Assembly: GCF_000377505.1 (NCBI RefSeq)
Contig: NZ_KB898187.1
Span: forward strand, 1-64,000
DNA length: 64,000 bases
Direction: 5' to 3'
DNA from: Paenibacillus massiliensis 2301065 = DSM 16942
GTDB taxonomy: Bacteria; Bacillota; Bacilli; Paenibacillales; Paenibacillaceae
Below, in pieces: positions 33,618-64,000 of this stretch. The notes under the pieces were generated by a model, which saw only the letters and a program-made list of their open reading frames with translations, did no database searches and was not told the origin of the DNA. Numbering within the stretch: the stretch's first letter is position 1; each line of letters starts with the position of its first letter. The position numbers and the translations under genes were made by a program.

Positions 33618-33854
33618 ATGCTAGATAACCTGTTTGAAATGCTTGATGAGGTGTATGGGAAGGCAACTTTATTTATGGGGCTTGCTTTCAAATTCGAGAC
33701 CGGAATAGCCATTATCGACAAGCACTCCGGCCAAGGTGTGACAGATGGATTCATTATAGACTGGGTAAGCTTCGGGGACATTGAGCAGTATGTATCTGTA
33801 ATTTGCAAGGATATGGATGAGTTGAAAGAGGTAATTCGAGAATTTGCCTTGTGA
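33618..33854 (+). CDS. Small hypothetical protein, first gene of the tail-like locus
   Basis: 78 residues from ATG 33618 with AAGGGAGAG upstream. No signal peptide, no membrane helix, no family recognised. Acidic C-terminal helix (KDMDELKEVIREF). The gap to the next gene (33855-34051) contains short GATAGATA direct repeats near 33880-33900 and nothing clear. Assignment to the tail locus is by orientation and position only. Confidence 0.6.
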   Translation: MLDNLFEMLDEVYGKATLFMGLAFKFETGIAIIDKHSGQGVTDGFIIDWVSFGDIEQYVSVICKDMDELKEVIREFAL

Positions 33855-34051
33855 CATGCAGGGCTTTTTTTAGATTTTAGATAGATACCTCGATAGATAT
33901 TTCCTTATATATCAGATTCTATCGGTCCGAGCTGTTTATGCCATCCTCTCCCATGTCTAATAGACGTTCTATCCTTTGAAAAAGGTGTGTAGCACTTATG
34001 AAGGCTTGATCGGGGTGAAAATTGCTTATATTGATCATTGGGGTGAGCGTA

Positions 34052-34273
34052 TTGAAATGTCATTGCGGAAGATTCATAACACAGCAGGCAAAATTTCTGG
34101 CTAACGTATACAAGGCTGAGGGTGGCAGGTGTATTCACTGTCTGTCTGATGTGCTCAGTGTTCCCTATCAGGAACTTATGGATAGATACATGGGAATATA
34201 CGAGTGTCGTCCTTGTGCTCAAGATAACAAGAAAGCTGAACTCCGAAGAAAGCTCTTGGGACTTGGAGGATAA
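34052..34273 (+). CDS. Small zinc-ribbon-like protein A
   Basis: 73 residues from TTG 34052, chosen because GGGGTGA lies 7 bases upstream; in-frame TTG 34022 and GTG 34043 are alternatives. Cysteines fall in three pairs, MKCHCGRFIT, CIHC and CRPC, a pattern that could bind one or two zinc ions. The neighbour at 34306 has the same three-pair layout and similar flanking residues (CGFRYVT, CLHC, CRPC), so the two are probably diverged paralogues. Role unknown; small zinc proteins in phage modules may regulate late genes or assist assembly. Confidence 0.6.
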   Translation: MKCHCGRFITQQAKFLANVYKAEGGRCIHCLSDVLSVPYQELMDRYMGIYECRPCAQDNKKAELRRKLLGLGG

Positions 34274-34276
34274 CAG

Positions 34277-34309
34277 ATGACATTGATCAGAAAGCAGAAC
34301 AGATCATGA
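34277..34309 (+). CDS. Mini-ORF translationally coupled to the next gene
   Basis: A 10-codon frame (MTLIRKQNRS). Its ATG is preceded by GGAGGATAACAG, the only good ribosome site here. Its TGA overlaps the ATG of the next gene as ATGA, and that gene lacks its own ribosome site. The arrangement suggests that ribosomes initiate on the mini-ORF and reinitiate. Confidence 0.4.
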   Translation: MTLIRKQNRS

Positions 34310-34569
34310 GTGACCTTGTAAAGTGTGTCAAGTGCGGTTTTCGCTACGTGACGGATAAGGCGAGAGAAAACTACCAGGCAGAGGAACTTAAGGGGGAGCC
34401 CTTGCTTTGTCTTCATTGTATCGGTGAAATGACAGGCAAAGTCATGAACAAATTTGGCTATTTGGTGTATCCGGAGGAAGTGGAGCTATCCAATACAAGA
34501 GCACAGATTATACCCAAATCCACACTTGCAGGATGCAGGCCATGTATGAAAAAAAGAGGATTCATTTGA
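34306..34569 (+). CDS. Small zinc-ribbon-like protein B
   Basis: 87 residues from ATG 34306. Three CxxC pairs: KCVKCGFRYVT, LLCLHCIGE and GCRPCMKK. These resemble protein A just upstream, which suggests duplication and divergence. No known family. Translation is probably coupled to the mini-ORF at 34277. A metal-binding regulator or structural accessory is possible but unproven. Confidence 0.62.
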   Translation: MSDLVKCVKCGFRYVTDKARENYQAEELKGEPLLCLHCIGEMTGKVMNKFGYLVYPEEVELSNTRAQIIPKSTLAGCRPCMKKRGFI

Positions 34570-34593
34570 ACAACTATCAACGAAAGAGGATGG

Positions 34594-34929
34594 ATGAAGA
34601 GTATGAGGGTAGAAAAAGAAACTAAGAAAACATTAGCTGATCAAGATGAACCTGTTACCGTAGAAGAGCTGAATGGAGAGATTATATCAGAGTTTGTACA
34701 ACAGCTTTCCTCCTACGGTCAATTCATCTACAACACGCGCAATGAAGGTGTCACTCTAGTTGTTGAGAATCTGGGCTATGGTGACGTCTATGTTAGCACG
34801 AACCCGGAAGTAAAGGTTGGAGTCGAAGAGCAGCGTCTGTTGATGAAAGAGCAGAAAGCATTCAAAGTAGACCGTGTGTTCTTTACTGCAGCCAGTGAGC
34901 CTGTGGTGCAGATCCTTGAAATATTGTGA
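34594..34929 (+). CDS. Probable small virion/tail structural protein
   Basis: 111 residues from ATG 34594 with AAAGAGGA upstream (ATG 34603 is an alternative). The second half is a predicted beta-rich segment, ENLGYGDVYVSTNPEVKVG then a KAFKVDRVFFTAASEPVV-type end, a pattern I associate with small phage surface or neck proteins. The N-terminal 35 residues are charged. It precedes the tail-completion-like gene by 90 bp. Confidence 0.55.
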   Translation: MKSMRVEKETKKTLADQDEPVTVEELNGEIISEFVQQLSSYGQFIYNTRNEGVTLVVENLGYGDVYVSTNPEVKVGVEEQRLLMKEQKAFKVDRVFFTAASEPVVQILEIL

Positions 34930-34976
34930 AGTACCAGTGACTGTACACAATCCGGTTAAAGCTGTCCCTCTTGCGT

Positions 34977-34985
34977 CTTATATTG
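34977..34985 (+). promoter_or_regulatory. Recurrent CTTATATTG motif (candidate late promoter -10)
   Basis: CTTATATTG, 34 bp before the start at 35020. The same 9-mer, with A or T at one position, precedes four other starts in the locus (42182, 47426, 59430, 60788). It contains a TATAWT-like -10. No consistent -35 was found. Confidence 0.45.
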
Positions 34986-35019
34986 AGTTACGAAGCCGTC
35001 AGCAGAGGATGTGATACGC

Positions 35020-35472
35020 ATGGCTAAGATTAGCATCTCTGACGTATACGACATCATCCATGCTAATCTTCGGGAAGACCCGGAGATTCTGGAGATGCTT
35101 GGATTAGAAGGGGATGCTTCGCCTCAAAAACTGGCTGTTAGGATTCAGAAACGAAGGAATCCAAAAGAGCTGGAAGCAGACAATCTGCCTCTCATCTCGT
35201 TTTTTAAAATTCCGGGAGAGCGCGGGAAAAGCTATCTTGAGTACAGGTTCAGCGTCGTTTTTATCGTCCACACTCAGGATGATGTGGGGCTGGCTGTTCG
35301 GATCGCCGACAGAATCACAGAACTCTTTGATGACAGGTTCATGAGAGGGTTGAAGCAAGTCAGCTTTTTCGGGCAATACATTACGAGTGCAGAGGATGTA
35401 TCTAACCCTGGAAAAGGCTACAAGTATTTTACCCAAATTGGTTTTACCATTGGGATAGATGAGGATGAATAA
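35020..35472 (+). CDS. Probable tail completion / tail terminator protein
   Basis: 150 residues from ATG 35020 (AGAGGA 10 bases upstream; GTG 35011 is too close to it). No signal or membrane segment. The position directly before the tail tube gene, the length and the beta/alpha pattern (LISFFKIPGERGKSYLEYRFSVV, VRIADRITELFDD) suit the small tail-completion proteins that cap the tube at its head end. Sequence identity to a named family was not recognised. It ends 13 bp before the tube gene start. Confidence 0.55.
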   Translation: MAKISISDVYDIIHANLREDPEILEMLGLEGDASPQKLAVRIQKRRNPKELEADNLPLISFFKIPGERGKSYLEYRFSVVFIVHTQDDVGLAVRIADRITELFDDRFMRGLKQVSFFGQYITSAEDVSNPGKGYKYFTQIGFTIGIDEDE

Positions 35473-35485
35473 GGAGGTCTTTTTA

Positions 35486-36544
35486 ATGGCAAACACCAAG
35501 AATAAAAAAATGATTATCAAGGGTGCCGGCAAATTCATGGCTAAAATTCCGAATTGTGATGACCTGGTTACAATCGGTACCTTGAATAACATGCGTCTGG
35601 ATGTCCAGCTTGATATGCAGGATATCGAGGGAGGCGACTCCAGCGTAGCGCTCGATACATTACTGCGCAAGAAGACGATCGATGTCACCGCTGAATCGGC
35701 CAAATTCGATCTGAATCTTGTTCGTCTGGTCCTCGGCTCCAAGCTACGTGAAGGTGTCTCGGGTGCGGCATTCAATATGGTTACAGAAACGGTTGTAGTC
35801 CCTTCAAGTTCACCTTACCAGGTTGAATTATCGCAGCTACCAATCACCACCCCAGCTCCTAAGGCTTATGAAAACCGAGTGGGCGGCAATGATGTGACTG
35901 CTAGCGTATCCATCACGGGAAAAGATAAAACGGTCATTTTTGATATGGCTCTTGCCGGTGCTACGGTTGTGATTGTGTATGCTGTCGCTCTGCCAGGTGT
36001 AACACCGGACCCTGACGGCTTTGTATGGGTGCTGGAAGAGAAGCACACCATTACGCAAAAGGGAAGTAGCTTCGAGGTCGACCTGGTTTATGCTTCTTCA
36101 CTGCATAGTGAGCCGCAAATTTCTGTCCGCACACTGAATGGAAACAAGCTGCTGAAGAAGACGGCGAGCGCTTCTCCTGGCGAGGACCAATATGTTGTTG
36201 AAGGCGGCAAACTGAAGTTTAACTCTGCGTTGAAGGACGTAAACATCTACGTGAACTACAAGCGTAACGAAGTGGTAGACGTTCTCGATATTACCACGCA
36301 GGATATGCCACTGACTGTACATGTCGTGCATGATGGACAATTCGAGCAAAAAGACGGCACTATTCAAGGCTACCAGACCGAGTTGTTCCAATGCCGCGTG
36401 AAGTCTAACTTTACTCTGGATGCGCAACGCCAGCAGGCTTCTACACACTCGGTGACCCTGACGGTGATCGATCCTGAGCGTCCTGATGGAAAACTTGGAA
36501 GCATTAAACGTTACGAGGTAGCGAGCACAGGAACCGTGTGCTAA
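35486..36544 (+). CDS. Probable major tail (tube) protein
   Basis: 352 residues from ATG 35486 with AAGGAGG 8 bases upstream. The N-terminal ~110 residues and the final ~90 (ITTQDMPLTVHVVHDG, FTLDAQRQQASTHSVTLTVI) form a beta-rich core suited to a tail tube subunit. Between them is an inserted beta-module with IVYAVAL and IYVNYKR ends. The single gene has the best ribosome site of the group and is followed at once by a strong terminator, as expected for the most abundant virion protein. No contractile-sheath features are seen. Identity rests on order and fold pattern. Confidence 0.68.
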   Translation: MANTKNKKMIIKGAGKFMAKIPNCDDLVTIGTLNNMRLDVQLDMQDIEGGDSSVALDTLLRKKTIDVTAESAKFDLNLVRLVLGSKLREGVSGAAFNMVTETVVVPSSSPYQVELSQLPITTPAPKAYENRVGGNDVTASVSITGKDKTVIFDMALAGATVVIVYAVALPGVTPDPDGFVWVLEEKHTITQKGSSFEVDLVYASSLHSEPQISVRTLNGNKLLKKTASASPGEDQYVVEGGKLKFNSALKDVNIYVNYKRNEVVDVLDITTQDMPLTVHVVHDGQFEQKDGTIQGYQTELFQCRVKSNFTLDAQRQQASTHSVTLTVIDPERPDGKLGSIKRYEVASTGTVC

Positions 36545-36574
36545 TTGATGAAAAAACAAGTACTATCTTGAATA

Positions 36575-36602
36575 GAAAAAACCCTCCATGGAGGGTTTTT
36601 TC
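36575..36602 (+). terminator. Terminator directly after the tube gene
   Basis: GAAAAAACCCTCC-ATG-GAGGGTTTTTTC is a near-perfect palindrome with A- and T-tracts, able to terminate in either direction. It probably gives the tube gene an excess of transcript over the chaperone and tape measure genes. Confidence 0.92.
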
Positions 36603-36740
36603 TTCTGTACAGCCTCTTCTGTTACATAACCAATAGATTTACTTAGAATGAGTTACGAGTTGACTGACAGGATGTCCCCCGCCTGTTGGTCGCCCTCGTT
36701 TCACTGCAATTGGGGGAAACACCTAAAGGGGGCTATTTTC

Positions 36741-37199
36741 ATGAATGAAAGAGATTTGGTTATTCCTAGAGCAAATGACGAAACGATTCAGCCTGAAGAA
36801 GCCGGGCAGGGAGAAGCTGCTTCTACAGTACAGGAAAATCCTCCAATGACTCAGGCAGAAGCAGATCAACGTGAGAAGGTCTACTTTGAAGAGGATGAGA
36901 AGGTTCGTCTTAGAGACGGTTTTACTTATTCCATTCCACCTCTGGGACTGAAAGACGCTCGTCAGCTGATCCAGAAACTGAACACGATTGATTCTGGCGT
37001 CATTATTGCTAACTTGATTCCCGAAGGTGAGGAAGAGGAAGACCGTTTCGACGAATTAATGGAGATTTTACATATGGCCTTCAAGCCATATTACAAACAT
37101 ATCACAGTGGAGTACCTCGAAGAATTTATAGACCTGGATACGGCTAAGACGATCATCGACTGCATGATCGGGTTGAATGGCTTAAAAAAGTCACTGTAA
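36741..37199 (+). CDS. Tail assembly chaperone, gpG-like (zero-frame product)
   Basis: 152 residues from ATG 36741 with AAAGGGGG upstream; upstream in-frame starts lack a ribosome site. Acidic N-terminus, then RLRDGFTYSIPPLGLKDARQLIQKLNTI and a helical end. It lies between tube and tape measure genes and ends in a slippery sequence, both hallmarks of the lambda gpG/gpGT chaperone pair, which coats the tape measure protein during tail assembly and is absent from the finished tail. Lengths (152 and 262 for the frameshift product) are close to lambda's 140 and 279. Confidence 0.85.
   Translation: MNERDLVIPRANDETIQPEEAGQGEAASTVQENPPMTQAEADQREKVYFEEDEKVRLRDGFTYSIPPLGLKDARQLIQKLNTIDSGVIIANLIPEGEEEEDRFDELMEILHMAFKPYYKHITVEYLEEFIDLDTAKTIIDCMIGLNGLKKSL
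37184..37190 (+). other. Programmed -1 ribosomal frameshift site (A AAA AAG)
   Basis: In the zero frame the codons are TTA AAA AAG, so the heptamer A AAA AAG has X XXY YYZ phasing, the most efficient bacterial -1 slip. It lies three codons before the zero-frame stop (TAA 37197-37199). After slipping, the -1 frame stays open to TGA at 37526-37528. Confidence 0.88.
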
Positions 37200-37528
37200 C
37201 CACTTCGAAGGAAGAAGAGGAATATGACAGTCAACCGCCAGTAGACTGGGCGAATATCTTCTTCAAGCTCGCGCATTACTGCAACTTTAAGAAGCAGGAT
37301 GTGTGGGATTTAACCCTTCCGCAGCTAGGTTACTATCTCGAGCAGTGCAATGAGCACATCCAGTTCACAGTCAAAATATCAACGATGTCACTTGGCGGTC
37401 TTGGATTGTTTAGTGGAGGCGTTGCTGCTGACGAACAAGGTGAAGTCGTAAAAGCCGATGGAACATATGTGGATGGATACAAAGTCGCTGACCAGGGAGA
37501 TATGGACTTCCTCGCAAGTCTGCTGTGA
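37190..37528 (+). CDS. Frameshift extension of the tail assembly chaperone (T part of gpGT)
   Basis: 112 residues in the -1 frame, joined to residue 150 of the upstream gene to give a 262-residue fusion. It begins VTVTTSKEEEEYDSQPP and includes DWANIFFKLAHYCNFKKQDV, WDLTLPQLGYYLEQCNEH and a Gly-rich stretch. It has no good ribosome site of its own; an internal GTG at 37301 has only weak SD-like bases. In lambda the T part binds the tube subunit while G binds the tape measure protein. Confidence 0.82.
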   Translation, partial: VTVTTSKEEEEYDSQPPVDWANIFFKLAHYCNFKKQDVWDLTLPQLGYYLEQCNEHIQFTVKISTMSLGGLGLFSGGVAADEQGEVVKADGTYVDGYKVADQGDMDFLASLL

Positions 37529-37595
37529 TCCGAGACTCCTGTCTGCTCCAGAATGGAGGGGCGGGAGTTTTATTATAATCAAGGTGGTGACAGTC

Positions 37596-40500
37596 TTGGA
37601 CAATATTCAGACCGGATTACTTTCGGGCTTTAAACAATCCATAGCCAGCATCAAGAAATTTGGAGAGGAGCTTGAAGGCTTGGATAGCCGTTTTGGGCGG
37701 CTTGACCAGCGCGTTCAGGCAATGCAGTCCTCTCTTGGCGCGTTGGATTCTCAAATGATTGAGCGTAGGGACGAGATAGAAAACATTATCAAAGCCATTA
37801 ATGATGTTAAGATACTTCCTTCGGAGAAGCTGAAGCGTTATTTGGTTGAGCAGATCAATCTCATGAATAAAAAGATCATTGATAAGGTAAGAGAGCAGAT
37901 TAACCTGCAGGTACAGTCCATCATGCAAGAGGTCAGCACGGGCCAGGTGGGCCCTCTAAATCTGACCAGGAATGGGCTCATACCAAATGTAAAAAGCTCA
38001 ACGAATAGTGGAGACCCTGGAGCGAAGAGCGGCGGCGTCAGCGGGTCAGGCAGTGTCTCAAGCAGTAGTGATCAGGGGGCTGCAAGCAGCAGTAAAAGAT
38101 CCGGGCTGACGGATGCAGTTATCAAGTCCTTCGGTGGTATGTTGGGCAAAAATTCAGATATTCCGGTACAACTGCTCTCCAATGCTGTCGATACCTTCAA
38201 GACAGTTCAGAATGAGCAGATCAAGATGATGCAGACAATGATGATGAAAAACCATGCCCTAAGCACAAAGCCCAAGGATAATGTGTCCGATGCGGGTAAA
38301 ACAATGGCTACAACAGCGGACATCCCGGACATTCAGAAGTTTGTCAGACAGCAATCCATCTATTATGGCACGGATTACGGGACGCTGACAAAGGTGGCTG
38401 GTATTGGTGTTCAGCAGTTCGATGACCCTACGGAAATCAAGAAATTTGTCCAGCTTGCTGCTCAGCTTCAGACCCTTGAACCGGGTAGTGATATCATCAA
38501 AATCGCTAGCGGGCTTGGATCTGTTATATCGCAGTTTGATCTGGCACTGGCAGACGTGCAGGAGAAGGTAGCACAGCCTCTAGCGGCAGTAACCGAAATT
38601 ACTCGTACTCCATCAACTAAGATCATAGAGGAAATGAGACGTTTTGACGCTGCGAATAAGGGTGGCAATATGGATCCGGATACAGCGATTGTTATGGCGG
38701 CCACCTCAATCAAGTCTGCGGCGACCGAAGGTGTAGATATCAATACATTCTACAACAATGCTCTGAAAAGTTTGCAATCCGATCATGCGCTGAGCCGTCT
38801 GGCCAAGCTTGGAGTGGACCCCTACAAGGCAGATGACATTACTGGTGCGAAAACACTTCGCCCTACAAATGAGCTGTTCACAGAGGTAGCAAGAGCTCTG
38901 ACTCGTATGGACTCCTCCACTCGAAGCGACACGTACCGGGATCTGTTCGGATCAGAACAGATATCCAAAGAGGCGGGGAGCATGTCCCGCATCATGAACA
39001 ATTTCGTAGAGACAATGAACAAGGTGGATCAGTTTAATCAAGGGCAGTATGAGAATACGATCAAAGCCTCTCTAGATAATCCTATGGTTAATGCGAATCG
39101 GGCGCACACAAGTATTAGCGTAGCGTTGGATGCACTTACCCAGGAATTCACTCCGGCCATTAATAAAGTGTCTTATATGCTGATGAATATGGCTGGCGGA
39201 ATAGAGAAGAATGCGGCAATCCTGGCTGACCTCGGTGGAATATTTGCAACAATGCTTACAGGCTTAATGGCGTGGCGTGGAATCAAGTGGGTGGGAAATA
39301 AACCTGGCGTGAATCTTCTTGAAAATGTAGAAACGCAGCGAACTCGAACTGGATTTATTAATTCTGTCGGCGGCTTACGTACAGATGGGCTGTTGTCAAG
39401 TGCTTTCGGAAATCTGAGTCGCCAACAGGTTGGGGAGATGCAGAAAAATCCTCTTCTTGAAGGTTACATTCGCAAGTTGGATGGTATGACCGAGGAGCAA
39501 AGGAATCATTTCAAAGCTTATTTGTCCGATAAGCGGATTGATGTTAAAGATTTACCGACGCTCTTCACTGCGATGGACGAAGCTCCGAATTGGGAAAAAA
39601 GGCCCGACTTAACTAATGTGGAGAAATACTCGCGAATCAGACAGTACAATAATCGTCTATCCACACGCCCGGAAGTGGCAAGTGCCCTTAGTTCTGGTTT
39701 CCTCGGTACACTAAATAGTAGTACAGCTAGTATGGGTGCATTTAACAGCCATCGAACGAATGCGGAATACAGTAACGTATCAGACCGGATGAGCCGCATG
39801 ACTCAGAAAGAGTTTGCTGGTTTTGAGAACAGCTTGGTGGAGCGCCAGCGTAACGGACTTCCGCCGATCCATGACATCACTTCACTCTCAAGAGCACTCG
39901 ATCACTACAGCAATAGTATACGGGAGTCGGAATCCGCGGCACGAAGGGCTACACCAACCTACGGCAGCCTTTCTAATGCGATCCGTTCGCTGAACTCTAG
40001 CACATCCAGTGCAGGTGGTATTCGCGAGAGATTCAGAAATTTCTTGAAAGATATCCCGAATTTAGCACGTGGGGCAGGCAGCTCTATTGTAGGGCTTACC
40101 AAGAACATCGCCAAAATGGGAGTGCAGATGGCTGCTATGTATGCGCTTGGGAAGGTTGTACAAGGAGTTACCGAAGGCATGACAACGACTGAGAGTGAAA
40201 AAAAACTCGCAGCTGCAGAGGGCAGGGAGAAGCAAAGCACCTATACTGCCAATATGTTAGAGGAAATGAGTGGAGGTGGTCTGCAGCCTCTTCTTAATCC
40301 AGCCTATTGGGGTGGTGTAGTCCGTGGCATGCTCGGGAGCGCAGGGAATGGCATTAGTAAATTTTTTGGTGGTAACGGTGATGATGTTGGTGTTGGTAAA
40401 TTGATGGATGATTTTAAATCTATGTCAGCGTACTACGGTTACAATGGTACAGCCCCGGATATGGCAAAGTGGCTCAAGGAAACAAAAGGTTTGACGATGG

Positions 40501-41903: not shown

Positions 41904-41937
41904 ACTAAATTCGAAGCTCCCCGCCTTATAGTGCGAG

Positions 41938-42175: not shown

Positions 42176-42181
42176 GAGCCT

Positions 42182-42843: not shown

Positions 42844-42844
42844 G

Positions 42845-54341: not shown

Positions 54342-57300
54342 GTGAATATGCTGAATGGTAATAAATCTTACCTTATCAGTTTCACCGCCCTTTTTAATAA
54401 AAAGGGCTATGAACTGGCTATTGGTATAGACACGATATTTGATGACGTGCGCACTACCCAATACCATCTTACAGCCCCTGCAATAAGTACCTACCGGACA
54501 CTGAAAATGGACGTGATGAAAACCGCCACGAAATCCCCATACTCTGCTTCCAGCCTTTTTGGGAATAGGCTGCGGGAAGCCGCTAACGTTACTGAGTTTG
54601 AAGCTGTGGAGATTCAAACGGTTTATGCCAATGTCGTTTCCTACCTTTCAGATATTCAAAGGTACTTCAGCGGGGAGAGCAGGGTGGATAGTATAAGGCT
54701 CAAAACAGCCGAAGGGAAGCGCACAGCGGTTGAAACAGAGCGTAGCGGACAGAGTGAAGGTGAAGTTTTTCATAACGTCCGGTTAGATTTCACAGTTCAA
54801 GCAGAGAATTTATTGGAAGCGTACCGCGAATCGACGGAGTCAGCAGAAAACATAGTCAGAGCAGCAGCTGAAGAGCTCATTTTCTCTGAGAATACAAAAA
54901 CAATCCAGCTTCACAGTCTCTCGAATTCTGACAACATATCTAACATAAGTGGTACCGCCGTCCAAGAGCACACATATGGAGACATTAGTCTAATCTATAA
55001 TATGCTCTCACTGAAGTTCGCGGAAGCAGAGAACATTAGGCCGGCGCTCAATATCAGCTTGGACATGCTCTCAGACAGCTTCGATATGGCTCCAATTACA
55101 GAAGTATTGATGCAGACGGTGGCGGATAACGTTGTGACAACAGATATTGAACAATTTACTGGTACACACCTGACCACGGACATTAAGGATGCGAGTTTCA
55201 TTCTCTTTACGTCTTCGGTGCGTGATGACGAGCTCGACTCAGCACCTATTGAGTGTGCAGTTGAGGGAGAACTGTCCAAGCTAGCAGAGATCGAAGAGTT
55301 TACTAGTGTAGGCAGGACCAAAGATTGGGAACATACCGACGTCGAGTATTTTGTTGCGGCATCTGATGGTAGGGACGAACATGCCACCGAGATTCATAAC
55401 GCGGTAGGGTCTCGTGGACTGTCTGATATGTTCGATGGTCTGATTGAAGAAGCTGCAGGAGTCAGCTCCGTATACGGTAATGAACTGGAGATCCTGGAAT
55501 TCCTTGACGGTCAGACACAAGATAGTGGGGAAGTTGTAGTAGAGCACATGACAGGCGCGGCAAACCAGTTAGCAAATGAACTGATGGGCCCAATTGAGCT
55601 TGTACAGGCGGAGCATGATACCCAGCAGATCGAGTCTGCAATTGATGGAGCCCTAACAGCTGAAATGATTAAGGGTATGGTCACAAAATCTCCCGAAGTC
55701 AGCAGAATGGCAAGGTTGATGGAGATTACGTACGGACACAGAGCCATGGAACTGGTCTATGCAGGTATGGATGGGATCATTCAGGACACGTTGAGCCAAG
55801 AAGCTACGTTAGCTGACTCAGGATCCATCACGGATGCCATAATCGCCAGGATGACCAAAGCCCTAAACGCACGAACGCTTGAAGTGGAAATGGCTGATGG
55901 AATGTCTAAGGGTACTTTAGAGTACTTTGATGACGCAGTGGAGGTCAAACCTGAGTACGGTAACGTCGAGAGCTATGGTGAAGCAGACAACAGTATCCGA
56001 CCTGAGCACGGGTCTGTTGACTTTACTGTCAATGCAGTAGAAAGCGAGCATGAGCACGGGATGTTAGATAACCTCGGCGAAGGGATTCTAAGTGAACCAG
56101 CACACGGTAAGATGGACAGCTCTGCAGAAGGGGCGAATAGCTTAACAGAGCATGGACGAGTAGACACCTACATGGAAGGTGTTGACTCCAAGCCAGTGCA
56201 CGGTAATGCCTTAACATTCGGTGAAGGTATGTACCACTTCATGGAAGCGGGAGAGCGCAATATCGGATACGATGGCGTCATACATGATATCGGAAAGGCT
56301 ATTGTCGAGGCGAACAAAAAGCTTGTCACGGTGGAAGTACCTGAGCAGGGGGAGATCATTAGCATGGATAAGGGAGTTCTTGAACAGCCTGAACACGGTA
56401 CAAGAGACCGTCTTGTGGATGTGGAGCTTACTTCAACCGAGCATGGAGAGCCAACTATTGTGCCTGAAAGCTACTTTACTAATGTTACAGAAACGAGCAT
56501 TCGCGATATTCGTTATGAAGGCATGGATCAGCCAATTGAAACAGCATCTCGAAAGATGGAACTTGAAGCAGTCAATTCCAATCCTGAATACGCCGATTGG
56601 ATCGATCAGGACATTGGTTTTGAACACTCGACAGAGTATGCAGATCGGTTCGGAGGAACATACGAAGGTATGTACGAGACGCCTACGCTGGCCAGCAGCG
56701 AGGGTTTCACCAACGATGCTGTTGCGCATGAGGCTGAGGGCGGTGCAGGGAATGAGGGTACGATAACTACCATAGTCGCAAGTAATGAGTGGGCTGATAA
56801 TCACAGCTCTGGTGAAGGTATTCTTGATAACGAGGCGGGACTTGGCTCGGCAGATCTGGTACTTGATGCTATACAGAGCACGACCGAGGGAGGCACAGGC
56901 GAGCTAATCCTTGACGCTGTTAATAACAACGGTGAGACAGCTCGTGTTGGAGACTTCCATATGATCTCCGATAATCAAGAGATGATACTAGCGGAATTGA
57001 ACGGAGGAACCGTTGAGTCTGAGGTTGGAGAGGACACGGAAGCCGATTCTGTACTTATAACTAGAGGCACTGACATAGGTGAAATCACGGATAGCATCCG
57101 TAAAAAGAAAGTAATCCCAACTGATGTTATGCACAGCGTAGACTCTCAACGGAAGAAGAAAGTGAACGAGATGGTCATTACAGAAACTTTTGACTCGACA
57201 AGGAAAAAGAAGATCATCGACACCAGGGTTGAGAACGGGGAGCGGAGCAACCGGATCAAGGAGGTTGTCAGCGTGAATATAGAAGAGTCTGATCATGCAA

Positions 57301-57449
57301 CCAGACCTAAAAGAGTTATTGAGACGGCAATCGAAAAACCTTCCGAAGCTACACACAAAACTCCGCCAAAACCTAAGAAGGGTCGTATATGGCTCATCTT
57401 GGGCAAGGTTGCTTCCTGGAGTATCTGGAACTGGAAGAAGACGAGGTAG
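54342..57449 (+). CDS. Large acidic repeat protein with 16- and 17-residue repeats
   Basis: 1035 residues from GTG 54342 (GGGAGGT upstream; ATG 54348 is an alternative). Very acidic for most of its length. From ~residue 537 it has 16-residue repeats centred on (E/A/V)HG; Gly codons recur exactly every 48 bp at 56010, 56058, 56106, 56154 and 56202. Near the C-terminus are 17-residue repeats with RKKK(V/I); Arg codons recur every 51 bp at 57099, 57150, 57201, 57252 and 57303. The tail is Pro/Lys-rich (PPKPKKGRIW). No known family. The regular period suggests a solenoid or fibrous shaft. Confidence 0.65.
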   Translation: MNMLNGNKSYLISFTALFNKKGYELAIGIDTIFDDVRTTQYHLTAPAISTYRTLKMDVMKTATKSPYSASSLFGNRLREAANVTEFEAVEIQTVYANVVSYLSDIQRYFSGESRVDSIRLKTAEGKRTAVETERSGQSEGEVFHNVRLDFTVQAENLLEAYRESTESAENIVRAAAEELIFSENTKTIQLHSLSNSDNISNISGTAVQEHTYGDISLIYNMLSLKFAEAENIRPALNISLDMLSDSFDMAPITEVLMQTVADNVVTTDIEQFTGTHLTTDIKDASFILFTSSVRDDELDSAPIECAVEGELSKLAEIEEFTSVGRTKDWEHTDVEYFVAASDGRDEHATEIHNAVGSRGLSDMFDGLIEEAAGVSSVYGNELEILEFLDGQTQDSGEVVVEHMTGAANQLANELMGPIELVQAEHDTQQIESAIDGALTAEMIKGMVTKSPEVSRMARLMEITYGHRAMELVYAGMDGIIQDTLSQEATLADSGSITDAIIARMTKALNARTLEVEMADGMSKGTLEYFDDAVEVKPEYGNVESYGEADNSIRPEHGSVDFTVNAVESEHEHGMLDNLGEGILSEPAHGKMDSSAEGANSLTEHGRVDTYMEGVDSKPVHGNALTFGEGMYHFMEAGERNIGYDGVIHDIGKAIVEANKKLVTVEVPEQGEIISMDKGVLEQPEHGTRDRLVDVELTSTEHGEPTIVPESYFTNVTETSIRDIRYEGMDQPIETASRKMELEAVNSNPEYADWIDQDIGFEHSTEYADRFGGTYEGMYETPTLASSEGFTNDAVAHEAEGGAGNEGTITTIVASNEWADNHSSGEGILDNEAGLGSADLVLDAIQSTTEGGTGELILDAVNNNGETARVGDFHMISDNQEMILAELNGGTVESEVGEDTEADSVLITRGTDIGEITDSIRKKKVIPTDVMHSVDSQRKKKVNEMVITETFDSTRKKKIIDTRVENGERSNRIKEVVSVNIEESDHATRPKRVIETAIEKPSEATHKTPPKPKKGRIWLILGKVASWSIWNWKKTR

Positions 57450-57457
57450 GTGAGACG

Positions 57458-58546
57458 ATGGGAATTTATAAAAAGTGGAGCGGTTTAATCTTCGACGATA
57501 AGTTTGATGGTGCAAGCATTGACTCCCGTTACGACTTATCACCTGCGGATGCGTTCACTTTAGATACAGGACTTAACCGATTAATGATGTCACATACAGA
57601 ACTGGAGTCTATGGTTCTGTTCGATGTTCCAGAGGATGAGCCTACACTGATGTTCGAGGTCACTGCCGATTATATTCCGACTGTGCTGGGGGACGAGGGG
57701 GGCATCGTAATCTGGCAGGACGGGTACCACCGACTTGAGTTCCTGGAAAGTAGAGACACGACTACAAGGGAATATAGCAGATGGCGGGCGCACAAGCATA
57801 ATAATACCTGGACATTCTATGCTAATCGTGGCGAAGGATGGGAGCTATTCGATTCTGCCAATATTGCAGCCCACAAGATGGGCGTAGTGCTTAAGAACCC
57901 CGATAGTCAGGGATTCGTTACCTTGAATCTTGACCGGTACGTAGTGTGCAAGAGTAGTAAAGTCACCATTGGGAACCTGCCTGAAGGGTACTCCGTTTAC
58001 CTGTGCGATTCTGATGGTAATTCGGTTGCTTCGGCCACGGTTCAGCCTTTATGGACCGGGGTTGAGTTAGAGCTTCCAGTTCTTCCCTATACCGGCATTC
58101 TCCGTGTCTACGATGAGCGTGGAGTGCTGTTGTCAAGCTTAGGTGCATTCGATATCTACGGTGGGGACACATACCTTTATGGCACAGACTTACGGGTTCT
58201 ATGGAAGGGTGTGGAATTGAATCTTACAAAAGAGACCTACCTGGGGACGATGTATGATGATTTGATACAGGTACAGATGGAGCTGCATAACCCGAGCAAT
58301 CATAAGACCGCGAATAATGTGACTATGGGCATCCTCAAGTACCTTGAAGAATTCGGCTACGAGTGGGCAGATATTTGTCACGACGATGGTATGGATAGCC
58401 CTGTAGGCGATTATGCAAAGACTGCCCTGGACATGGGTTCACTTGAACCTCTAGGTAGTAAGAAGTTTTGGATGAAAGTAGAAAGAAGCTCGGAGCACTT
58501 CGGAATCAAGCCGATTCACTTTATCCTTGATATTACTCATACGTAA
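57458..58546 (+). CDS. Tail fibre protein with lectin-like (concanavalin-type) N-terminal domain
   Basis: 362 residues from ATG 57458 with GAGGTAGGTGAG upstream, overlapping the end of the previous gene. Residues ~8-180 look like a DUF1349/laminin-G-type beta-sandwich (LIFDDKFDGASIDSRYDL, GIVIWQDGYHRLEFLESRD, GEGWELFDSANI). The middle has a repeated beta motif (YSVYLCDSDGNSVASATV). The C-terminus is LGSKKFWMKVERSSEHFG. Carbohydrate binding is a reasonable guess. Confidence 0.62.
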   Translation: MGIYKKWSGLIFDDKFDGASIDSRYDLSPADAFTLDTGLNRLMMSHTELESMVLFDVPEDEPTLMFEVTADYIPTVLGDEGGIVIWQDGYHRLEFLESRDTTTREYSRWRAHKHNNTWTFYANRGEGWELFDSANIAAHKMGVVLKNPDSQGFVTLNLDRYVVCKSSKVTIGNLPEGYSVYLCDSDGNSVASATVQPLWTGVELELPVLPYTGILRVYDERGVLLSSLGAFDIYGGDTYLYGTDLRVLWKGVELNLTKETYLGTMYDDLIQVQMELHNPSNHKTANNVTMGILKYLEEFGYEWADICHDDGMDSPVGDYAKTALDMGSLEPLGSKKFWMKVERSSEHFGIKPIHFILDITHT

Positions 58547-58560
58547 GGGGGTGTTAGACT

Positions 58561-59394
58561 ATGGCAGGTACTAAAATGACGCTCCGCAGGTACGGTAATG
58601 AAATAACCTACTGGAACGAGCAAGAGATTATCGTTGACCCAGCATTCCTTGATACGAATAATGGCTTGTACATCACTCTGACACACCCTTACGTGGTGGG
58701 GAGCAAGATGCTGGATGTGTACTTTAACGGTCAGCTTTTATCTGAAGGTGGCGGCTATGAAGAGATTGACGAGACTCATATTCGCCTTGATCTTGGCGTG
58801 TATCCTCCTGAGCATCCGTTCATGGGGCAAGCAGTCCTTCTTATGGCTGGAGACGAGATTTACATTCGGACTTGGAAGGCGGAATACCGTCAAGGAAATG
58901 GTAGCGGTATTGATGATCTTCGATTCAAGAGACTTGAGGAAGAGGTCATCAATGCTCGCAAGTACAAAGATGGTGACATTCCATTCTACCGTCTCGACGA
59001 CAGACTTGATTACATTCAGCAGCGGGCAGAATCGAAGACAATGGTCTTCGTCCTGAACCGTGTGTTCAGTGGGGTAGCCAAGCTGGAGATTCGCTTTCCG
59101 TATGAGGGACAGATTACTGAGGTGTACGGATCAGCGATGAAGCCCGGAACAACGAGAACGGTGTTTAAAATCGAGAAGTGCTCTCAAGAAAACTACGACA
59201 CTACACCCGTATGGACGGATATCTTGGGTAAAGATCTAACTCTTGACCCCGACGAGAAATCCTCGAATACTGCTGCTAGCCCATATGCAATTGCCATCCC
59301 GAAGATTGAGAAGAATGACCATTTCAGGATTAACGTTGCAGAGCTTGGTGAGGGAATAGAGGGAGTCACAATTGAACTTGTGGTTATTATCTAA
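58561..59394 (+). CDS. Tail fibre/structural protein
   Basis: 277 residues from ATG 58561 with AAGGGGGTG upstream. The N-terminal ~110 residues contain the recurrent small beta-module (LDVYFNGQLLSEGGGYEE to GDEIYIRTWK). A short helix with LRFKRLEEEVINARKY may trimerise. The C-terminal ~115 residues (LNRVFSGVAKLEIRFPYEGQI) form another beta domain. A fibre or fibre-adaptor by context. Confidence 0.6.
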   Translation: MAGTKMTLRRYGNEITYWNEQEIIVDPAFLDTNNGLYITLTHPYVVGSKMLDVYFNGQLLSEGGGYEEIDETHIRLDLGVYPPEHPFMGQAVLLMAGDEIYIRTWKAEYRQGNGSGIDDLRFKRLEEEVINARKYKDGDIPFYRLDDRLDYIQQRAESKTMVFVLNRVFSGVAKLEIRFPYEGQITEVYGSAMKPGTTRTVFKIEKCSQENYDTTPVWTDILGKDLTLDPDEKSSNTAASPYAIAIPKIEKNDHFRINVAELGEGIEGVTIELVVII

Positions 59395-59400
59395 TTCTAC

Positions 59401-59438
59401 ATTGGGCGGCTAAAAAGCCGTCCAATGAACTTATATTG
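59401..59438 (+). promoter_or_regulatory. Hairpin plus CTTATATTG motif between fibre genes
   Basis: ATTGGGCGGCT-AAA-AGCCGTCCAAT (59401-59426) is a strong stem without a U-tract. CTTATATTG (59430-59438) follows, 37 bp before the start at 59476. It may be an mRNA-processing or partial terminator site next to a promoter. Confidence 0.45.
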
Positions 59439-59475
59439 TATATGCAGTAACCATTTCAAATAGAGGTGAAAATAT

Positions 59476-60708
59476 ATGGCAGGAACTAGAGGCATTGCAA
59501 GATTCCGTGGTGAACAGCTTAACAATAAGCTGATGCGCGATAACCACTTTGATGTCAACAACAAGATTAACGAGAATAAGGTCGATATTCTGTGGCGTAG
59601 CCACCGCGAGATTCTGGAAGATACGAAAATCGACGTGTTCGTTCAAAAGAACGATGTAAATGTAAGTGCAGGTACAAAATCTATTGAAATTACCCCGGAT
59701 ATCCTGAACCCTGTGGTAGCCACGGATGTTAACACCGAGGGTACGGTTGTCAATACTGTCATTGATCTTCGCAAGAACGGTACAGAAGACTTCCCGTTCA
59801 TTGATGAAGATGGCGATAGAGTATATGGTAAGGTACGCGAGGATGCAGGCAAGTTTTATCTGGATTTCTACAGTGAGGTTGCAGGTGCGGAAGCTCCTTA
59901 TACCTTCCCCGAAGTAGCTATTCTCGACTACAAATATATCACTCGTACGAATCTGTCTGTCATCCCTGTAGACGCAATCGTGTCTGGCGGGGGAGGTCTT
60001 GTAGCCGATGCGGTTGACGCTAAAGCTTACATGAATCTTATCCAGCTGATGAAGGACCTTTACGGAGCAGCAGGTCATCTTGACAATGATGGTAATGCCA
60101 ATCTTACCAAGCCAGTAACTCAGATGATTGTTGATGAAGGCACTGCAAGAGCAGAAGGTGATAACGAAATCCGTAATGACCTGGCTTCGACTGCATCGGC
60201 TAAAGGGGCAAGTCTCATCGGGGTAGTCGCTGATCCGAACTACACTGGTGTTACTGTTCAGGATATATTGGCAAATCTGGCACAGCGTCTCGTTGATGCT
60301 GAAGATTTGACTTCGGGTATATCTGATCGTGATGCTGACTCCGCTAACGGATATTTCAAGGCCGGCGATTTTGGAACGGCAGAAGGACGTATCGTTGATC
60401 TTGAGACTGCGGCTGACAACGCGTTTAAGAACCATGAAGAGCGTGTTCATAAGCTGGAGACGGAGGACGAGGAGGAGGTCTTCGAAGCCGTAGGCGGAGA
60501 GGCAGAGTATACCCTTGTGAAAGGGGTAGCCAAGCCCAAGACGGTAGCCCTGTTCATCAATGGTCAAGCTCAAGCTCCTGGAATCAACTATGCGTTCAAA
60601 ATGGATGCTAACGGTAACATTACAGGCTTCGATTTTGCTCCAGATAGTCTAAAAGTCACTGAAGGTATCCCTGACGTTGTGTACGTGAAATACAAGAAGG
60701 TTCTGTAA
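59476..60708 (+). CDS. Tail fibre protein with coiled-coil/trimerisation segment
   Basis: 410 residues from ATG 59476 with AGAGGTGA upstream. The N-terminal ~150 residues may attach to the baseplate (BppU-like in position: VDVFVQKNDVNV-type strands and VIDLRKNGTEDFPF). The middle has helical coiled-coil patches and TASAKGASLIGV followed by TVQDILANLAQRL, a segment often found at the start of tailspike shafts. The last ~80 residues are the recurrent beta-module (LFINGQAQAPGINYAFKMD to VVYVKYKKVL). Followed by a strong terminator. Confidence 0.68.
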   Translation: MAGTRGIARFRGEQLNNKLMRDNHFDVNNKINENKVDILWRSHREILEDTKIDVFVQKNDVNVSAGTKSIEITPDILNPVVATDVNTEGTVVNTVIDLRKNGTEDFPFIDEDGDRVYGKVREDAGKFYLDFYSEVAGAEAPYTFPEVAILDYKYITRTNLSVIPVDAIVSGGGGLVADAVDAKAYMNLIQLMKDLYGAAGHLDNDGNANLTKPVTQMIVDEGTARAEGDNEIRNDLASTASAKGASLIGVVADPNYTGVTVQDILANLAQRLVDAEDLTSGISDRDADSANGYFKAGDFGTAEGRIVDLETAADNAFKNHEERVHKLETEDEEEVFEAVGGEAEYTLVKGVAKPKTVALFINGQAQAPGINYAFKMDANGNITGFDFAPDSLKVTEGIPDVVYVKYKKVL

Positions 60709-60719
60709 GAACCTGTCTG

Positions 60720-60749
60720 AGACCCCTTGATTCAAAGGGGTCTTTTTTA
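60720..60749 (+). terminator. Rho-independent terminator
   Basis: AGACCCCTT-GATTC-AAAGGGGTCT followed by TTTTT. It ends the fibre unit. Confidence 0.92.
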
Positions 60750-60787
60750 ATTCGTACAATCCATGTGTTAAGTTTGCTATCGAGATT

Positions 60788-60796
60788 CTTATATTG
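60788..60796 (+). promoter_or_regulatory. Recurrent CTTATATTG motif (candidate late promoter -10)
   Basis: CTTATATTG, behind a terminator and 50 bp before the start at 60847. A small hairpin, TGACC-GAA-GGTCA, lies between motif and gene. Confidence 0.5.
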
Positions 60797-60846
60797 TATT
60801 TACCAATGACCGAAGGTCATGGACAAATTTAAGAGGGGGCTATAAA

Positions 60847-61338
60847 ATGCCAGCACCAGCAGTCTCTTGGTATAAATCAGACAACGTAACGTCACTGCCT
60901 AGATGGGATATCGGTACGATTGACGCAGGTTCTACTTCTCCGGCATTGGGAGTTCTCATTTGGAACAACCGTGGAGGTACCGCAGACCTGTCTACTATGA
61001 CCAACTGTACGATCACTACTAAAGATAGTGCGGGCGGGGACACAGGAGAGCTTGTTCTTAACGTCTGGATTGAGGTGCGTGTCGATAGTATGGCTGAGTC
61101 AGGGTTTACTAAGGTCGGCGGTACGAAGACAAAAATCATTCAGGCGGGCGGCAACACAACCAATACTTCAGGTACGTACTCTCCGAACAACAAAGAAATT
61201 CTTGGAGCAATGAATGATGGTTCTAAAACCAATTCGAAAGGAAACTTTGCAGAAGTGACCCTTCAAGCCAATGTACCTCCGACAGCAACAGCAGGTAACG
61301 TTAACTTCCTTACACGGGTAGCCTACCAATACGTGTAA
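60847..61338 (+). CDS. Small beta-rich tail-locus protein
   Basis: 163 residues from ATG 60847 with AAGAGGGGG upstream. Thr/Gly/Asn-rich, beta-sandwich-like (LIWNNRGGTADLSTMTNCTI, VLNVWIEVRVDSM, VNFLTRVAYQYV). No signal peptide. It has its own promoter-like motif and a strong ribosome site, so it may be made in quantity as a decoration or fibre protein. Confidence 0.58.
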   Translation: MPAPAVSWYKSDNVTSLPRWDIGTIDAGSTSPALGVLIWNNRGGTADLSTMTNCTITTKDSAGGDTGELVLNVWIEVRVDSMAESGFTKVGGTKTKIIQAGGNTTNTSGTYSPNNKEILGAMNDGSKTNSKGNFAEVTLQANVPPTATAGNVNFLTRVAYQYV

Positions 61339-61371
61339 TCCATCAATCCAATACAATGGAGGGACTAACCA

Positions 61372-61995
61372 ATGTTTAGCCAATGTAACGGATACTCACC
61401 AGTATCCCAACAAGACTTCATTTGGTTAGGTGAGTACATAGACGGTACTCACCTAGCCGAATTTGATTTCCTGACACACCAAGAGAACAGCTTCTATTCT
61501 ATTAATCGCGAGAATCTATTGCGGTTCGGGCTTGTAGGTAGGGGGCAGAAGTTCTTTACTGAAGCGGATGGGACATTCAAATTGGCAGGCAAGATGGTAG
61601 ATTTGGTGTACTCTACACCAGAAACAGAATTTCGACTAACAGGAAATATTCGTTATTGTTATAGCGATGTTATTACTTATAAGGACGCACAAGCAAGTGG
61701 TCTGGCAAACTTTAGTTCGGTGGCGATAGGAGCTGGCGGTAACTTCAGCAGCTCCATCACCCAGTTTAACTTTGGATATAAGGCCATGTTCGAGATTGAC
61801 GGTGTGATGTTCCATTTAAGAGCCATCTGCATGATTCCTACCCATTCCTATGACCAAATACTCAAGGTTCGCTTAGTAGCAGACAAGGAATTGTGGGGTC
61901 ATTTGAAGTTCGTAGTGAATGGCTTGAATGTATACGAGTACGATGCACCGCTCAAGCCGAACGTTGGAGGTGAATTAAATTGGCTGATTCAGTAA
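61372..61995 (+). CDS. Hypothetical beta-rich tail-locus protein
   Basis: 207 residues from ATG 61372 with GGAGGGA upstream. Contains YTWLGEYIDG-like opening (FIWLGEYIDGTHLAEFDFLT), then a NSFYSINRENLLRFGLVG segment and a beta-rich C-terminus. No family recognised. It overlaps the next gene by 16 bp, so the two are coupled. This and the next protein may form one fibre tip. Confidence 0.6.
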   Translation: MFSQCNGYSPVSQQDFIWLGEYIDGTHLAEFDFLTHQENSFYSINRENLLRFGLVGRGQKFFTEADGTFKLAGKMVDLVYSTPETEFRLTGNIRYCYSDVITYKDAQASGLANFSSVAIGAGGNFSSSITQFNFGYKAMFEIDGVMFHLRAICMIPTHSYDQILKVRLVADKELWGHLKFVVNGLNVYEYDAPLKPNVGGELNWLIQ

Positions 61996-64000
61996 TCCGT
62001 AACTATACAATTGAAGTGGACAAGCGAAAGAATAAGTCAACCTTCAAGCTTTACTCATATCCAGTGGAAGTCCTCACTCCTGCCGGATGGGCTAACATTT
62101 ATGATGAGTATGCAGATCTCGTGGAGAAGTCGGCAACGCAAGAACTTACTGAAGTTGAAGCGCGTTCACTTCGTGAATACCAAGACCTCACCGTGGCATT
62201 TGAGGAAAACAAGCTTGCTGAGACAATCATCTTCGACACAGCAGACCCGAACGGTATTGAAATCCTTGGCCGAGATCGAGTGCAGCACGTCCTTGAAGCT
62301 GAGACTAAGGCAGAGATTCCGTTCTTGCGTGAGTTTGCTTATGTTCACGGAGCGTCCAATATCAGCGGTACCATTGTTCTGCCTTATGATGACTATTCTG
62401 ATGTGTACGTGGTCAGTGACGCAGACGAAGACGGCGTAGCTGAGTTGACGTTTGTTAAGGACAAGGAAGAAACTGGCGGGGAGCGTCCTTACTATGAGAA
62501 GAAGGGTGGTAAGACGTATATCTACGTTAACCACTTCTCTGGAGGCGGTGGTACGCAAGCATCCCCGTACATCGTTTCCAACGAGCAAGAGCTTAACAAG
62601 GTTCGTAACAATCTTGGAGCATGGTATAAACAAGACCGCGATATTGTCATGGGTAGCTTCCAGACAGGTGCAGGTTTTGTTCCAATTGGTACCACTTCAG
62701 CAGGTTGGATGGGGGAGTACGATGGTAACGGCTACTCTATTAAGAGCCTGTTCATCAACTCTACTGTGCAGTACACAGGACTGTTTGGGTATGTATACGG
62801 TGGAACAGTGAGAAACCTTCGTTTGGTTGACCCCAATATTACATGTTCAAGCAGTCGTGTTGGCTCGTTCATGGGCGGCGGGTATAATCCTGTGATTCAG
62901 AACTGTAACGTTATTGGTGGGTCAGTGACGGGCGTAGGCACAGTTGGTGGTATTGTTGGTTATGCTCTGGCAGATAATAGGTATAGTGGTAACGGCGTTG
63001 TAATCAACTTCTGCTATAGCTACAAATGTAACGTCAGAACGAGCGGAAACGTTGCTGGCGGAATTATCGGACAATTTCAATACGGCTACGCCGGAAGCAG
63101 TTACCTTGCTAATTGCTTCTCTACTGGTGTAGTTGAGGATATTACGCTTGCTATGGATAAAGCCAATATTGGTGGTCTCGCAGGCCTTGCTGATTCTAAT
63201 CAGTACATTTCCTATTATGATAATTATTGGGATATGGAGAAGTCCAAGTGCGGTAACAGCGCAGTCGGTATCGGCCTTTCGACAGCAGATGCCAAAAAAG
63301 CATCTTCATATGTGAACTGGAACTTCGATATTTACTGGTACATCGACGAAGAATACAACGAAGGATATCCTGAGCATAGACAGTTTGTATACTTCAAGCA
63401 CGGAAAAGGTACACAGGCAGAGCCTTTCGTTATCACGACCGAGTTTGAGCTGAATCAAATTCGATGGTGGAGAAAAGGGTTCTACTTCAGGTTCGAGGAC
63501 GATCTTAAGATGATTGACCATCAGACGGGTAAAGGGTTTTACCCCATCGGGTTCGCTCTTGTAGGCAAGGATAACAACTGCCAGGCATTCATCGACGGCG
63601 GCAACAGGAGTATTGCTAATCTATTTATCTCCCGTCTAGGTGATAGTCATGTCAGCTTGTTTGGTGCCATTACAAGTGGTTGGGTTAAGAATCTGGATAT
63701 TATAGATTGTAACATCTCAGGTGGACAGTTCACATCAGTCTTCGGCTCCGTTACAAACGCTACGATTAGCAATTGCCACTCTGATACATTTAATGCCAGC
63801 AAAGTGTCTGGAACTTATGTCGGAGGGCTCGTTGGAAATCTAACTACTGGCGCTGTGATTGAAGACTGCTCGGCCAATGTCGTCACATCAAGTTCCGACT
63901 GTGTCGGCGCGTTCGTCGGGAACATCTATAATAACGCGATTATCCGCAGATGCTATGCCTCAGGTAGGACAGAGAATACTGGAGGTTACTTGGGTGGATT
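61980..64000 (+). CDS. GLUG-repeat tailspike/adhesin, N-terminal part (runs off the window)
   Basis: At least 673 residues from TTG 61980, with GGAGGTGA 5 bases upstream; no stop before 64000. After a ~180-residue N-terminal domain, the protein contains two tandem copies of a ~230-residue unit. Each starts with a GTQA-x-P segment (GGGGTQASPYIVSNEQELN and GKGTQAEPFVITTEFELN), followed by an FxPIG strand and GLUG-type repeats (GTVGGIVGYAL, GGIIGQFQYG, GGLVGNLTTGAVIEDCSA). GLUG repeats form beta-helices in secreted adhesins. Here they would be the receptor-binding spike. The C-terminus is missing. Confidence 0.72.
   Translation, partial: MADSVIRNYTIEVDKRKNKSTFKLYSYPVEVLTPAGWANIYDEYADLVEKSATQELTEVEARSLREYQDLTVAFEENKLAETIIFDTADPNGIEILGRDRVQHVLEAETKAEIPFLREFAYVHGASNISGTIVLPYDDYSDVYVVSDADEDGVAELTFVKDKEETGGERPYYEKKGGKTYIYVNHFSGGGGTQASPYIVSNEQELNKVRNNLGAWYKQDRDIVMGSFQTGAGFVPIGTTSAGWMGEYDGNGYSIKSLFINSTVQYTGLFGYVYGGTVRNLRLVDPNITCSSSRVGSFMGGGYNPVIQNCNVIGGSVTGVGTVGGIVGYALADNRYSGNGVVINFCYSYKCNVRTSGNVAGGIIGQFQYGYAGSSYLANCFSTGVVEDITLAMDKANIGGLAGLADSNQYISYYDNYWDMEKSKCGNSAVGIGLSTADAKKASSYVNWNFDIYWYIDEEYNEGYPEHRQFVYFKHGKGTQAEPFVITTEFELNQIRWWRKGFYFRFEDDLKMIDHQTGKGFYPIGFALVGKDNNCQAFIDGGNRSIANLFISRLGDSHVSLFGAITSGWVKNLDIIDCNISGGQFTSVFGSVTNATISNCHSDTFNASKVSGTYVGGLVGNLTTGAVIEDCSANVVTSSSDCVGAFVGNIYNNAIIRRCYASGRTENTGGYLGG

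What the first reader, a model, noticed from the sequence alone, without database searches (positions are those of the whole stretch)
33618..64000. A headless, non-contractile tail-like locus directly behind ponA: candidate new tailocin-type system
About 30 kb of co-directional genes follow siphovirus tail order: tail completion, tube, frameshifted chaperone, tape measure, baseplate with hub lysin, then many fibres. The left border is a core gene (ponA) with its terminator, so there is no room upstream for head genes. No integrase, terminase, portal, capsid, sheath or AAA disassembly protein is seen. This suggests a flexible tail-like particle resembling F-type pyocins or Listeria monocin in plan, but with a much larger and novel fibre set and SLH-bearing tail tip. 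Many of the downstream proteins match no family I recognise.
Basis: partly seen in the sequence, partly recalled or inferred. Interest (0 to 1): 0.88.

Follow-up and report, generated by a model that had tools for sequence, protein, structure and literature searches.

The report
Headless siphophage-tail locus in Paenibacillus
This bacterium carries the complete tail, cell-lysis and gene-switching parts of a large phage but none of its DNA-carrying head, and close relatives have repeatedly made the same cut from the same phage group, which points to a domesticated phage-tail weapon (tailocin) that should be tested in the laboratory.

Summary
Bases 33310-77770 of the contig (window = its first 64000 bases) are a 44.5-kb insert between ponA and the sanA/hflX region; a sister species (flanks 97.4% identical) lacks it. 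Gene for gene it matches the tail (gp160-139), lysis (gp137/135/134), sigma-factor (gp117, gp51) and gp75 virion genes of Brevibacillus phage Jenst, a 126-kb siphovirus. Terminase, portal, capsid, connectors, integrase and replication genes are absent; no Jenst-type, PF05065 or PF04860 head protein was found in the whole genome. New here: (1) many Paenibacillus species carry such loci without head genes; (2) head-bearing phages are scattered through their tree (at least 6 changes), and two loci keep deletion scars; (3) tail genes in headless relatives are under purifying selection; (4) a phage-type late promoter (GTTAA-N16/17-CTTATAWTG) and its likely sigma factor are retained. Best reading: a non-contractile (F-type-like) tailocin of a new lineage, formed by repeated head loss. 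Killing is inferred, not shown.

The parts
33310..64000 (+). In-window part of the 44.46-kb insert (contig 33310-77770); a sister species has 19 bp here instead. Beyond the window, in contig coordinates: fibre 64809-68765, lysis cassette 69034-70776, sigma-like 71119-71649, gp75 virion protein 71967-73082, sigma factor 76033-76995, late promoter 68817
   Evidence: Alignment with G022 empty site, flanks 97.4% identical; genes beyond the window
33618..33854 (+). Small first gene, shared with the P. dendrobii headless locus (56%)
34022..34273 (+). Jenst gp176 homologue, Cys-rich small protein
   Evidence: phrog_32445 E 1.5e-41; gene order as in Jenst
34306..34569 (+). Jenst gp174 homologue, Cys-rich small protein
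   Evidence: phrog_29009 E 2e-47
34594..34929 (+). Jenst gp164 homologue (55%), N-terminally shorter; predicted cupin-like jelly roll; in Jenst it follows the capsid gene
35020..35472 (+). gp160 homologue (60%), probable tail terminator by position
   Evidence: no PDB sequence match
35459..36544 (+). Tail tube protein (gp159, 82%)
   Evidence: best PDB matches are SPR-type tail tubes, E 2.5e-5
36648..37199 (+). Tail assembly chaperone G (gp158, 64%)
37200..37528 (+). Chaperone T extension (gp157, 69%), reached by a -1 frameshift at AAAAAAG just before the gp158 stop
   Evidence: Slip site and open frame conserved in own, Jenst, G058, G060
37590..41903 (+). Tape measure protein, about 1,436 aa (gp156, 44%); lacks about 226 residues present in Jenst
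42193..42843 (+). gp155 homologue (73%) with C-terminal SLH motif
   Evidence: Pfam SLH 5e-6
42845..43885 (+). gp154 homologue (58%)
43891..47367 (+). Tail hub with M23 peptidase and 3D domains (gp153, 66% over 99%)
47457..50958 (+). Baseplate/structural proteins gp152, gp151, gp150 (62-77%)
   Evidence: PKD domain in the gp150 homologue
50928..54320 (+). Structural proteins gp149 and gp148 (64%, 69%)
   Evidence: DUF2460
54342..61995 (+). Distal structural/fibre genes gp147-gp142
61980..64000 (+). Large fibre protein with GLUG motifs (only its C terminus resembles gp140/141); continues to contig position 64781
34025..34033 (+). Late-promoter element CTTATATTG before gp176
34977..34985 (+). 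Late-promoter element before gp160; same place in Jenst
42182..42190 (+). Late-promoter element before gp155; same place in Jenst
47426..47434 (+). Late-promoter element before gp152; same place in Jenst
59430..59438 (+). Late-promoter element before gp144
60788..60796 (+). Late-promoter element before gp143; same place in Jenst

Best explanation
The locus is a domesticated tail module of a Jenst-type siphophage that makes a long, flexible, non-contractile headless tail, used as a tailocin. A retained phage sigma factor (76033 product, perhaps with the 71119 product) switches on late promoters that drive tail and lysis genes. Tails assemble on a tape measure of about 1,436 residues (predicted length about 235 nm, scaling from Jenst) and are capped without a head. 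Holin and amidase lyse the producer and release the particles. Distal fibres bind a target surface, the hub's M23/3D peptidase cuts its wall, and the open tube would depolarise and kill it. Shown by sequence: gene content, empty site, missing head, conserved promoters, and recurrent head loss with selection on tail genes in relatives. Inferred: assembly, release, target range, killing and the trigger.
For: All main late tail and lysis genes are present with intact frames, most at 44-82% identity to Jenst, a siphovirus with a 286-nm sheathless tail (PMC4909266). Head, packaging, integrase and replication genes are missing here and no Jenst, PF05065 or PF04860 head protein was found anywhere in a 99.9%-complete genome. 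What is kept is what a tailocin needs: tail, lysis and sigma genes, including gp51, gp75 and gp117, which lie far from the tail module in Jenst. Seven CTTATAWTG elements lie on the locus + strand against 2 in the remaining 235.6 kb of strand searched (P 1.6e-7), with five at the same places in Jenst. In headless relatives tail genes have dN/dS mostly 0.03-0.3 while capsid-side and integrase scars reach 0.4-1.5. Head loss recurred: the head label needs at least 6 changes on the hub tree. G066/G016 keep terminase fragments beside gp164. Distal fibres are replaced fast (dN 0.5-0.7 versus about 0.05-0.1 for most core tail genes), as expected for target recognition.
Against: No experiment shows particles or killing. 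Selection could not be measured on this very locus: the closest relatives are about 70% identical in protein and synonymous sites would be near saturation. No LexA box lies at its 5' end, so the SOS induction seen for other tailocins is not apparent. Some headless relatives look decayed in part: gp160 is broken in P. dendrobii and P. amylolyticus, and clade b has a 286-aa tape measure under weak constraint and no recognisable endolysin. No immunity gene was identified.
Confidence: 0.74

Rival explanations
1. A prophage remnant in slow decay: head, integrase and replication genes happened to be deleted and the rest persists without function.
For: Defective prophages are common; some headless relatives show broken gp160, a shortened tape measure or lost endolysin.
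Against: All tail, lysis and sigma frames here are intact; promoters persist at the same places as in Jenst; tail genes of headless relatives are under purifying selection; the same subset was lost independently several times.
Confidence: 0.15
2. The tails serve a non-killing host purpose, for example wall remodelling, adhesion through SLH and sugar-binding domains, or controlled lysis.
For: SLH, PKD, Laminin_G_3 and CBM96 domains; clade b keeps hub and fibres but barely any tape measure.
Against: SLH, hub and lysis genes are ordinary parts of the Jenst virion and lysis system; fibre replacement fits target recognition.
Confidence: 0.07
3. A tail-donating satellite that borrows heads from a helper phage.
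For: Clade-a relatives keep helicase, primase, loader and polymerase under constraint although headless.
Against: This locus has no replication, terminase or integrase gene, and no PF05065/PF04860 head protein was found in the genome.
Confidence: 0.03
4. An ordinary prophage whose head genes lie just outside the window.
For: Automated tools call such regions intact Jenst prophages (PMC12643537); IMG/VR lists this locus as a virus (L133).
Against: 76 kb of the contig beyond the window was fetched and searched with Jenst proteins; the insert ends at 77.77 kb at host genes; no Jenst-type head gene in the genome.
Confidence: 0.01

Closest known systems
Brevibacillus phage Jenst / SecTim467 (Jenstvirus), siphovirus
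   Same: Collinear orthologues of tail, fibre, lysis, sigma and gp75 genes, same frameshift site, same late promoter at five places, SLH protein included
   Different: Jenst has terminase, portal, capsid, connectors, an annotated integrase, replication and partition genes; this locus has none
F-type pyocins of Pseudomonas, monocin of Listeria, rhizoviticin of Allorhizobium vitis
   Same: Headless non-contractile tail locus with lysis and regulatory genes
   Different: As known from the literature these derive from other siphophages (F-pyocin from lambda-like ones); here the source is a 126-kb Jenst-type phage, and the locus carries its own sigma factor and promoter set
'Intact Jenst prophages' reported by PHASTEST in the P. 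polymyxa group (PMC12643537)
   Same: Very probably the clade-b loci studied here (P. terrae, P. maysiensis and P. farraposensis appear to overlap)
   Different: They were called intact; the loci examined here lack head genes
Phage tail-like bacteriocin of Brevibacillus laterosporus 1821L (PMC9406221)
   Same: Related host family, tail-like particle
   Different: Contractile PBSX/XkdK type with a sheath protein; unrelated tail type

Membership tests
F-type (non-contractile) tailocin | Non-contractile siphovirus tail genes, no sheath | tested here: met
   Tube resembles SPR-type tail tube; no sheath gene found; collinear with a sheathless siphovirus
F-type (non-contractile) tailocin | No capsid, portal or terminase | tested here: met
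F-type (non-contractile) tailocin | Own lysis cassette and regulators | tested here: met
   holin-like, amidase, sigma factors, late promoters
F-type (non-contractile) tailocin | Headless particles released from cells | not testable with these tools
   needs electron microscopy
F-type (non-contractile) tailocin | Kills related strains | not testable with these tools
   needs spot assays
F-type (non-contractile) tailocin | SOS-inducible | tested here: inconclusive
   No LexA box at the 5' end; two perfect boxes inside genes fit chance
F-pyocin or monocin lineage | Descent from the same phage group | not tested
   No F-pyocin or monocin protein was compared directly; best matches are all Jenst-type
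Jenst-type (Jenstvirus-like) phage | Collinear tail and lysis genes | tested here: met
Jenst-type (Jenstvirus-like) phage | Head, packaging and replication genes | tested here: not met
R-type tailocin or eCIS | Contractile sheath | tested here: not met
   No sheath in the locus

The most novel reading that the evidence does not exclude
The ~68-kb clade-a relatives are a working stage between phage and tailocin: they lost only the head region (with terminase scars) but keep a constrained replication module, either to amplify their own tail genes before lysis (a self-amplifying tailocin) or to spread in borrowed helper heads (a tail-donating satellite). The 44-kb locus here would then be the streamlined end stage.
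Probability: 0.12. Interest if true: 0.88.

Novelty: new variant of a known kind. Interest (0 to 1): 0.66.

Why it matters
Few non-contractile tailocins are known, and how phages turn into them is mostly inferred from single end points. This phage group offers a series: intact ~120-kb phages, headless loci with replication genes and deletion scars, an intermediate keeping two connector genes, and streamlined headless loci with their own sigma regulon. That makes the route from phage to tailocin testable. It also suggests that automated prophage callers can mistake such loci for intact prophages.

Tried and rejected
Nucleotide search against phages found nothing, so comparison was by protein. 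LexA boxes at the 5' end: none. Attachment-site repeats at the borders: only chance 9-mers. The 160-170-kb inserts in G024 and G048 looked at first like insertions at the same site; they are unrelated large prophages nearer spoVK/hflX. gp164 as a known connector or decoration protein: only weak cupin-like fold matches. gp160 as tail terminator: no PDB sequence match, so position only. One protein (L005:7068-7334) was a wrong coordinate and is ignored.

Full report
What is there. The window is the first 64000 bases of a 553-kb contig of a 6.39-Mb, 99.9%-complete genome; its relatives are named Paenibacillus species. A co-directional block begins right after ponA and continues beyond the window. 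Against a sister species whose flanks are 97.4% identical, the insert is 33310-77770, 44.46 kb, in place of 19 bp. To the right come a diverged copy of the ponA terminator hairpin, a sanA-like gene, hflX, glnR and glnA.

Identity. Pfam recognises little, but PHROG hits and tblastn point to one phage group: the hub is 66% identical over 99% to Brevibacillus phage Jenst. Comparison with Jenst gives gp164, gp160-gp139, gp137, gp135, gp134, gp51, gp75 and gp117 in that order, most at 44-82% identity; the large distal fibres (gp147, gp141-139 equivalents) are only partly alignable, at 24-61%. gp161-163, gp165 (capsid), gp168 (portal), gp170 (terminase), gp138 (integrase) and the replication genes tested are absent. 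Jenst is a siphovirus with a 286-nm sheathless tail (PMC4909266). The SLH protein and the fibre set are Jenst features, so they are not new. The tube model (pLDDT 75, moderate) matches SPR-type tail tubes, supported by a sequence profile hit.

No head anywhere. Jenst capsid, portal and terminase find nothing in this genome, nor do PF05065 and PF04860. Other head families were not searched genome-wide.

Relatives. Of 75 genomes in the genus, 30 have a homologue of the gp154 gene and one (G031) has a Jenst-type capsid, next to portal and terminase. The other 29 show none. In G002 and G001 the distant portal matches lie far from the tail locus. Among named records, capsids occur in the B. tequilensis and B. 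pumilus contigs of 116-124 kb, in Jenst and in several IMG/VR contigs, and in none of the Paenibacillus or Brevibacillus genomes tested; short IMG/VR fragments are uninformative. Clade a (G058, G066, G016, G001) has loci that keep helicase, primase and polymerase but no head, about 68 kb long where both ends were read; G066 and G016 retain short terminase fragments, and clade-a loci a gp161 fragment. P. tengchongensis keeps two connector genes but no capsid. Clade b (P. polymyxa/terrae group) is 34 kb with a 286-aa tape measure. Clade c (17 genomes, about 33% identity; similar distance from miaA in many) has a more distant tail locus; the one examined in full, G002, is headless, while G031 is the intact phage of this type.

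Repeated head loss. On a tree of the hub protein, head-bearing phages are scattered and the label needs at least 6 changes. Rows without a detected capsid were scored headless, including a few contig fragments, so the number is approximate; but the P. amylolyticus locus is sister to a head-bearing contig (L143), and this locus groups with P. dendrobii and P. tengchongensis at 100/99 support.

Selection. Between G058, G066 and G016, tail genes mostly have dN/dS 0.03-0.3 and replication genes 0.06-0.28; the gp161 scar has 0.43 and the integrase scar 0.78-1.49 (short fragments, noisy). Between G001 and G066 the last three fibre genes have dN 0.5-0.7 against about 0.05-0.1 for most core tail genes.

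Regulation. The element GTTAA-N16/17-CTTATAWTG (first part loosely conserved) occurs 7 times on the + strand of the locus, all before genes, against 2 elsewhere (the exact 9-base core was counted). Five places match Jenst, where it also precedes head genes; orthologous places carry it in G058, G001, G060 and G013. The motif was found by enumeration in upstream regions of own and Jenst genes together, so the P value is somewhat optimistic; the orthologous positions in relatives not used for discovery are the independent check. The pairing with the gp117-type sigma factor is inference. No SOS box was found at the 5' end.

Verdict. Anatomy, origin and head loss are shown. That the locus makes a killing particle is inferred, at about 0.74. 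It works like an F-type tailocin; shared descent with F-pyocins or monocin was not tested.

Noticed in passing
G058:C1:4325466-4392787; G066:C13:52068-123340: Headless ~68-kb loci between glnA and lexA that keep phage helicase, primase, loader and DNA polymerase under constraint, with terminase scars in G066 and a tRNA-Pro beside the left end in G066 and G016.
   Followed up: partly
L055-L056 (G060:C1:1437092-1470947) and G013: Headless loci whose tape measure is only 286 aa and weakly constrained while hub and fibres stay conserved; no recognisable endolysin. Are tail tips made without a tail?
   Followed up: partly
L058-L060 (G002:C1:4130516-4175302): A more distant headless tail locus (clade c) with holin, amidase and two glycosyltransferase-like genes between scpA/scpB and spmA/spmB; its gp154-type gene sits at a similar distance from miaA in many species.
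   Followed up: partly
G024:C1 about 4400004-4567000; G048:C1 about 4064166-4221900: Very large (about 157-167 kb) SPbeta-like prophages near spoVK/hflX, the G048 one with a large serine recombinase at its edge.
   Followed up: partly
window 34594-34929: gp164, which follows the capsid gene in phages, is kept in many headless loci but with a shorter N terminus; predicted cupin-like fold, role unknown.
   Followed up: partly
contig C3 71967-73082 (L005:11967-13082): gp75 virion protein: an N terminus like gp151 joined to a HEIGH zincin-like region with no Pfam match; kept here although it lies far from the tail genes in Jenst.
   Followed up: no
L133 (IMGVR_UViG_2517572189_000001): IMG/VR already lists this locus (gp155 and hub regions 100% identical) as a 40-kb viral sequence although it has no capsid gene.
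   Followed up: no
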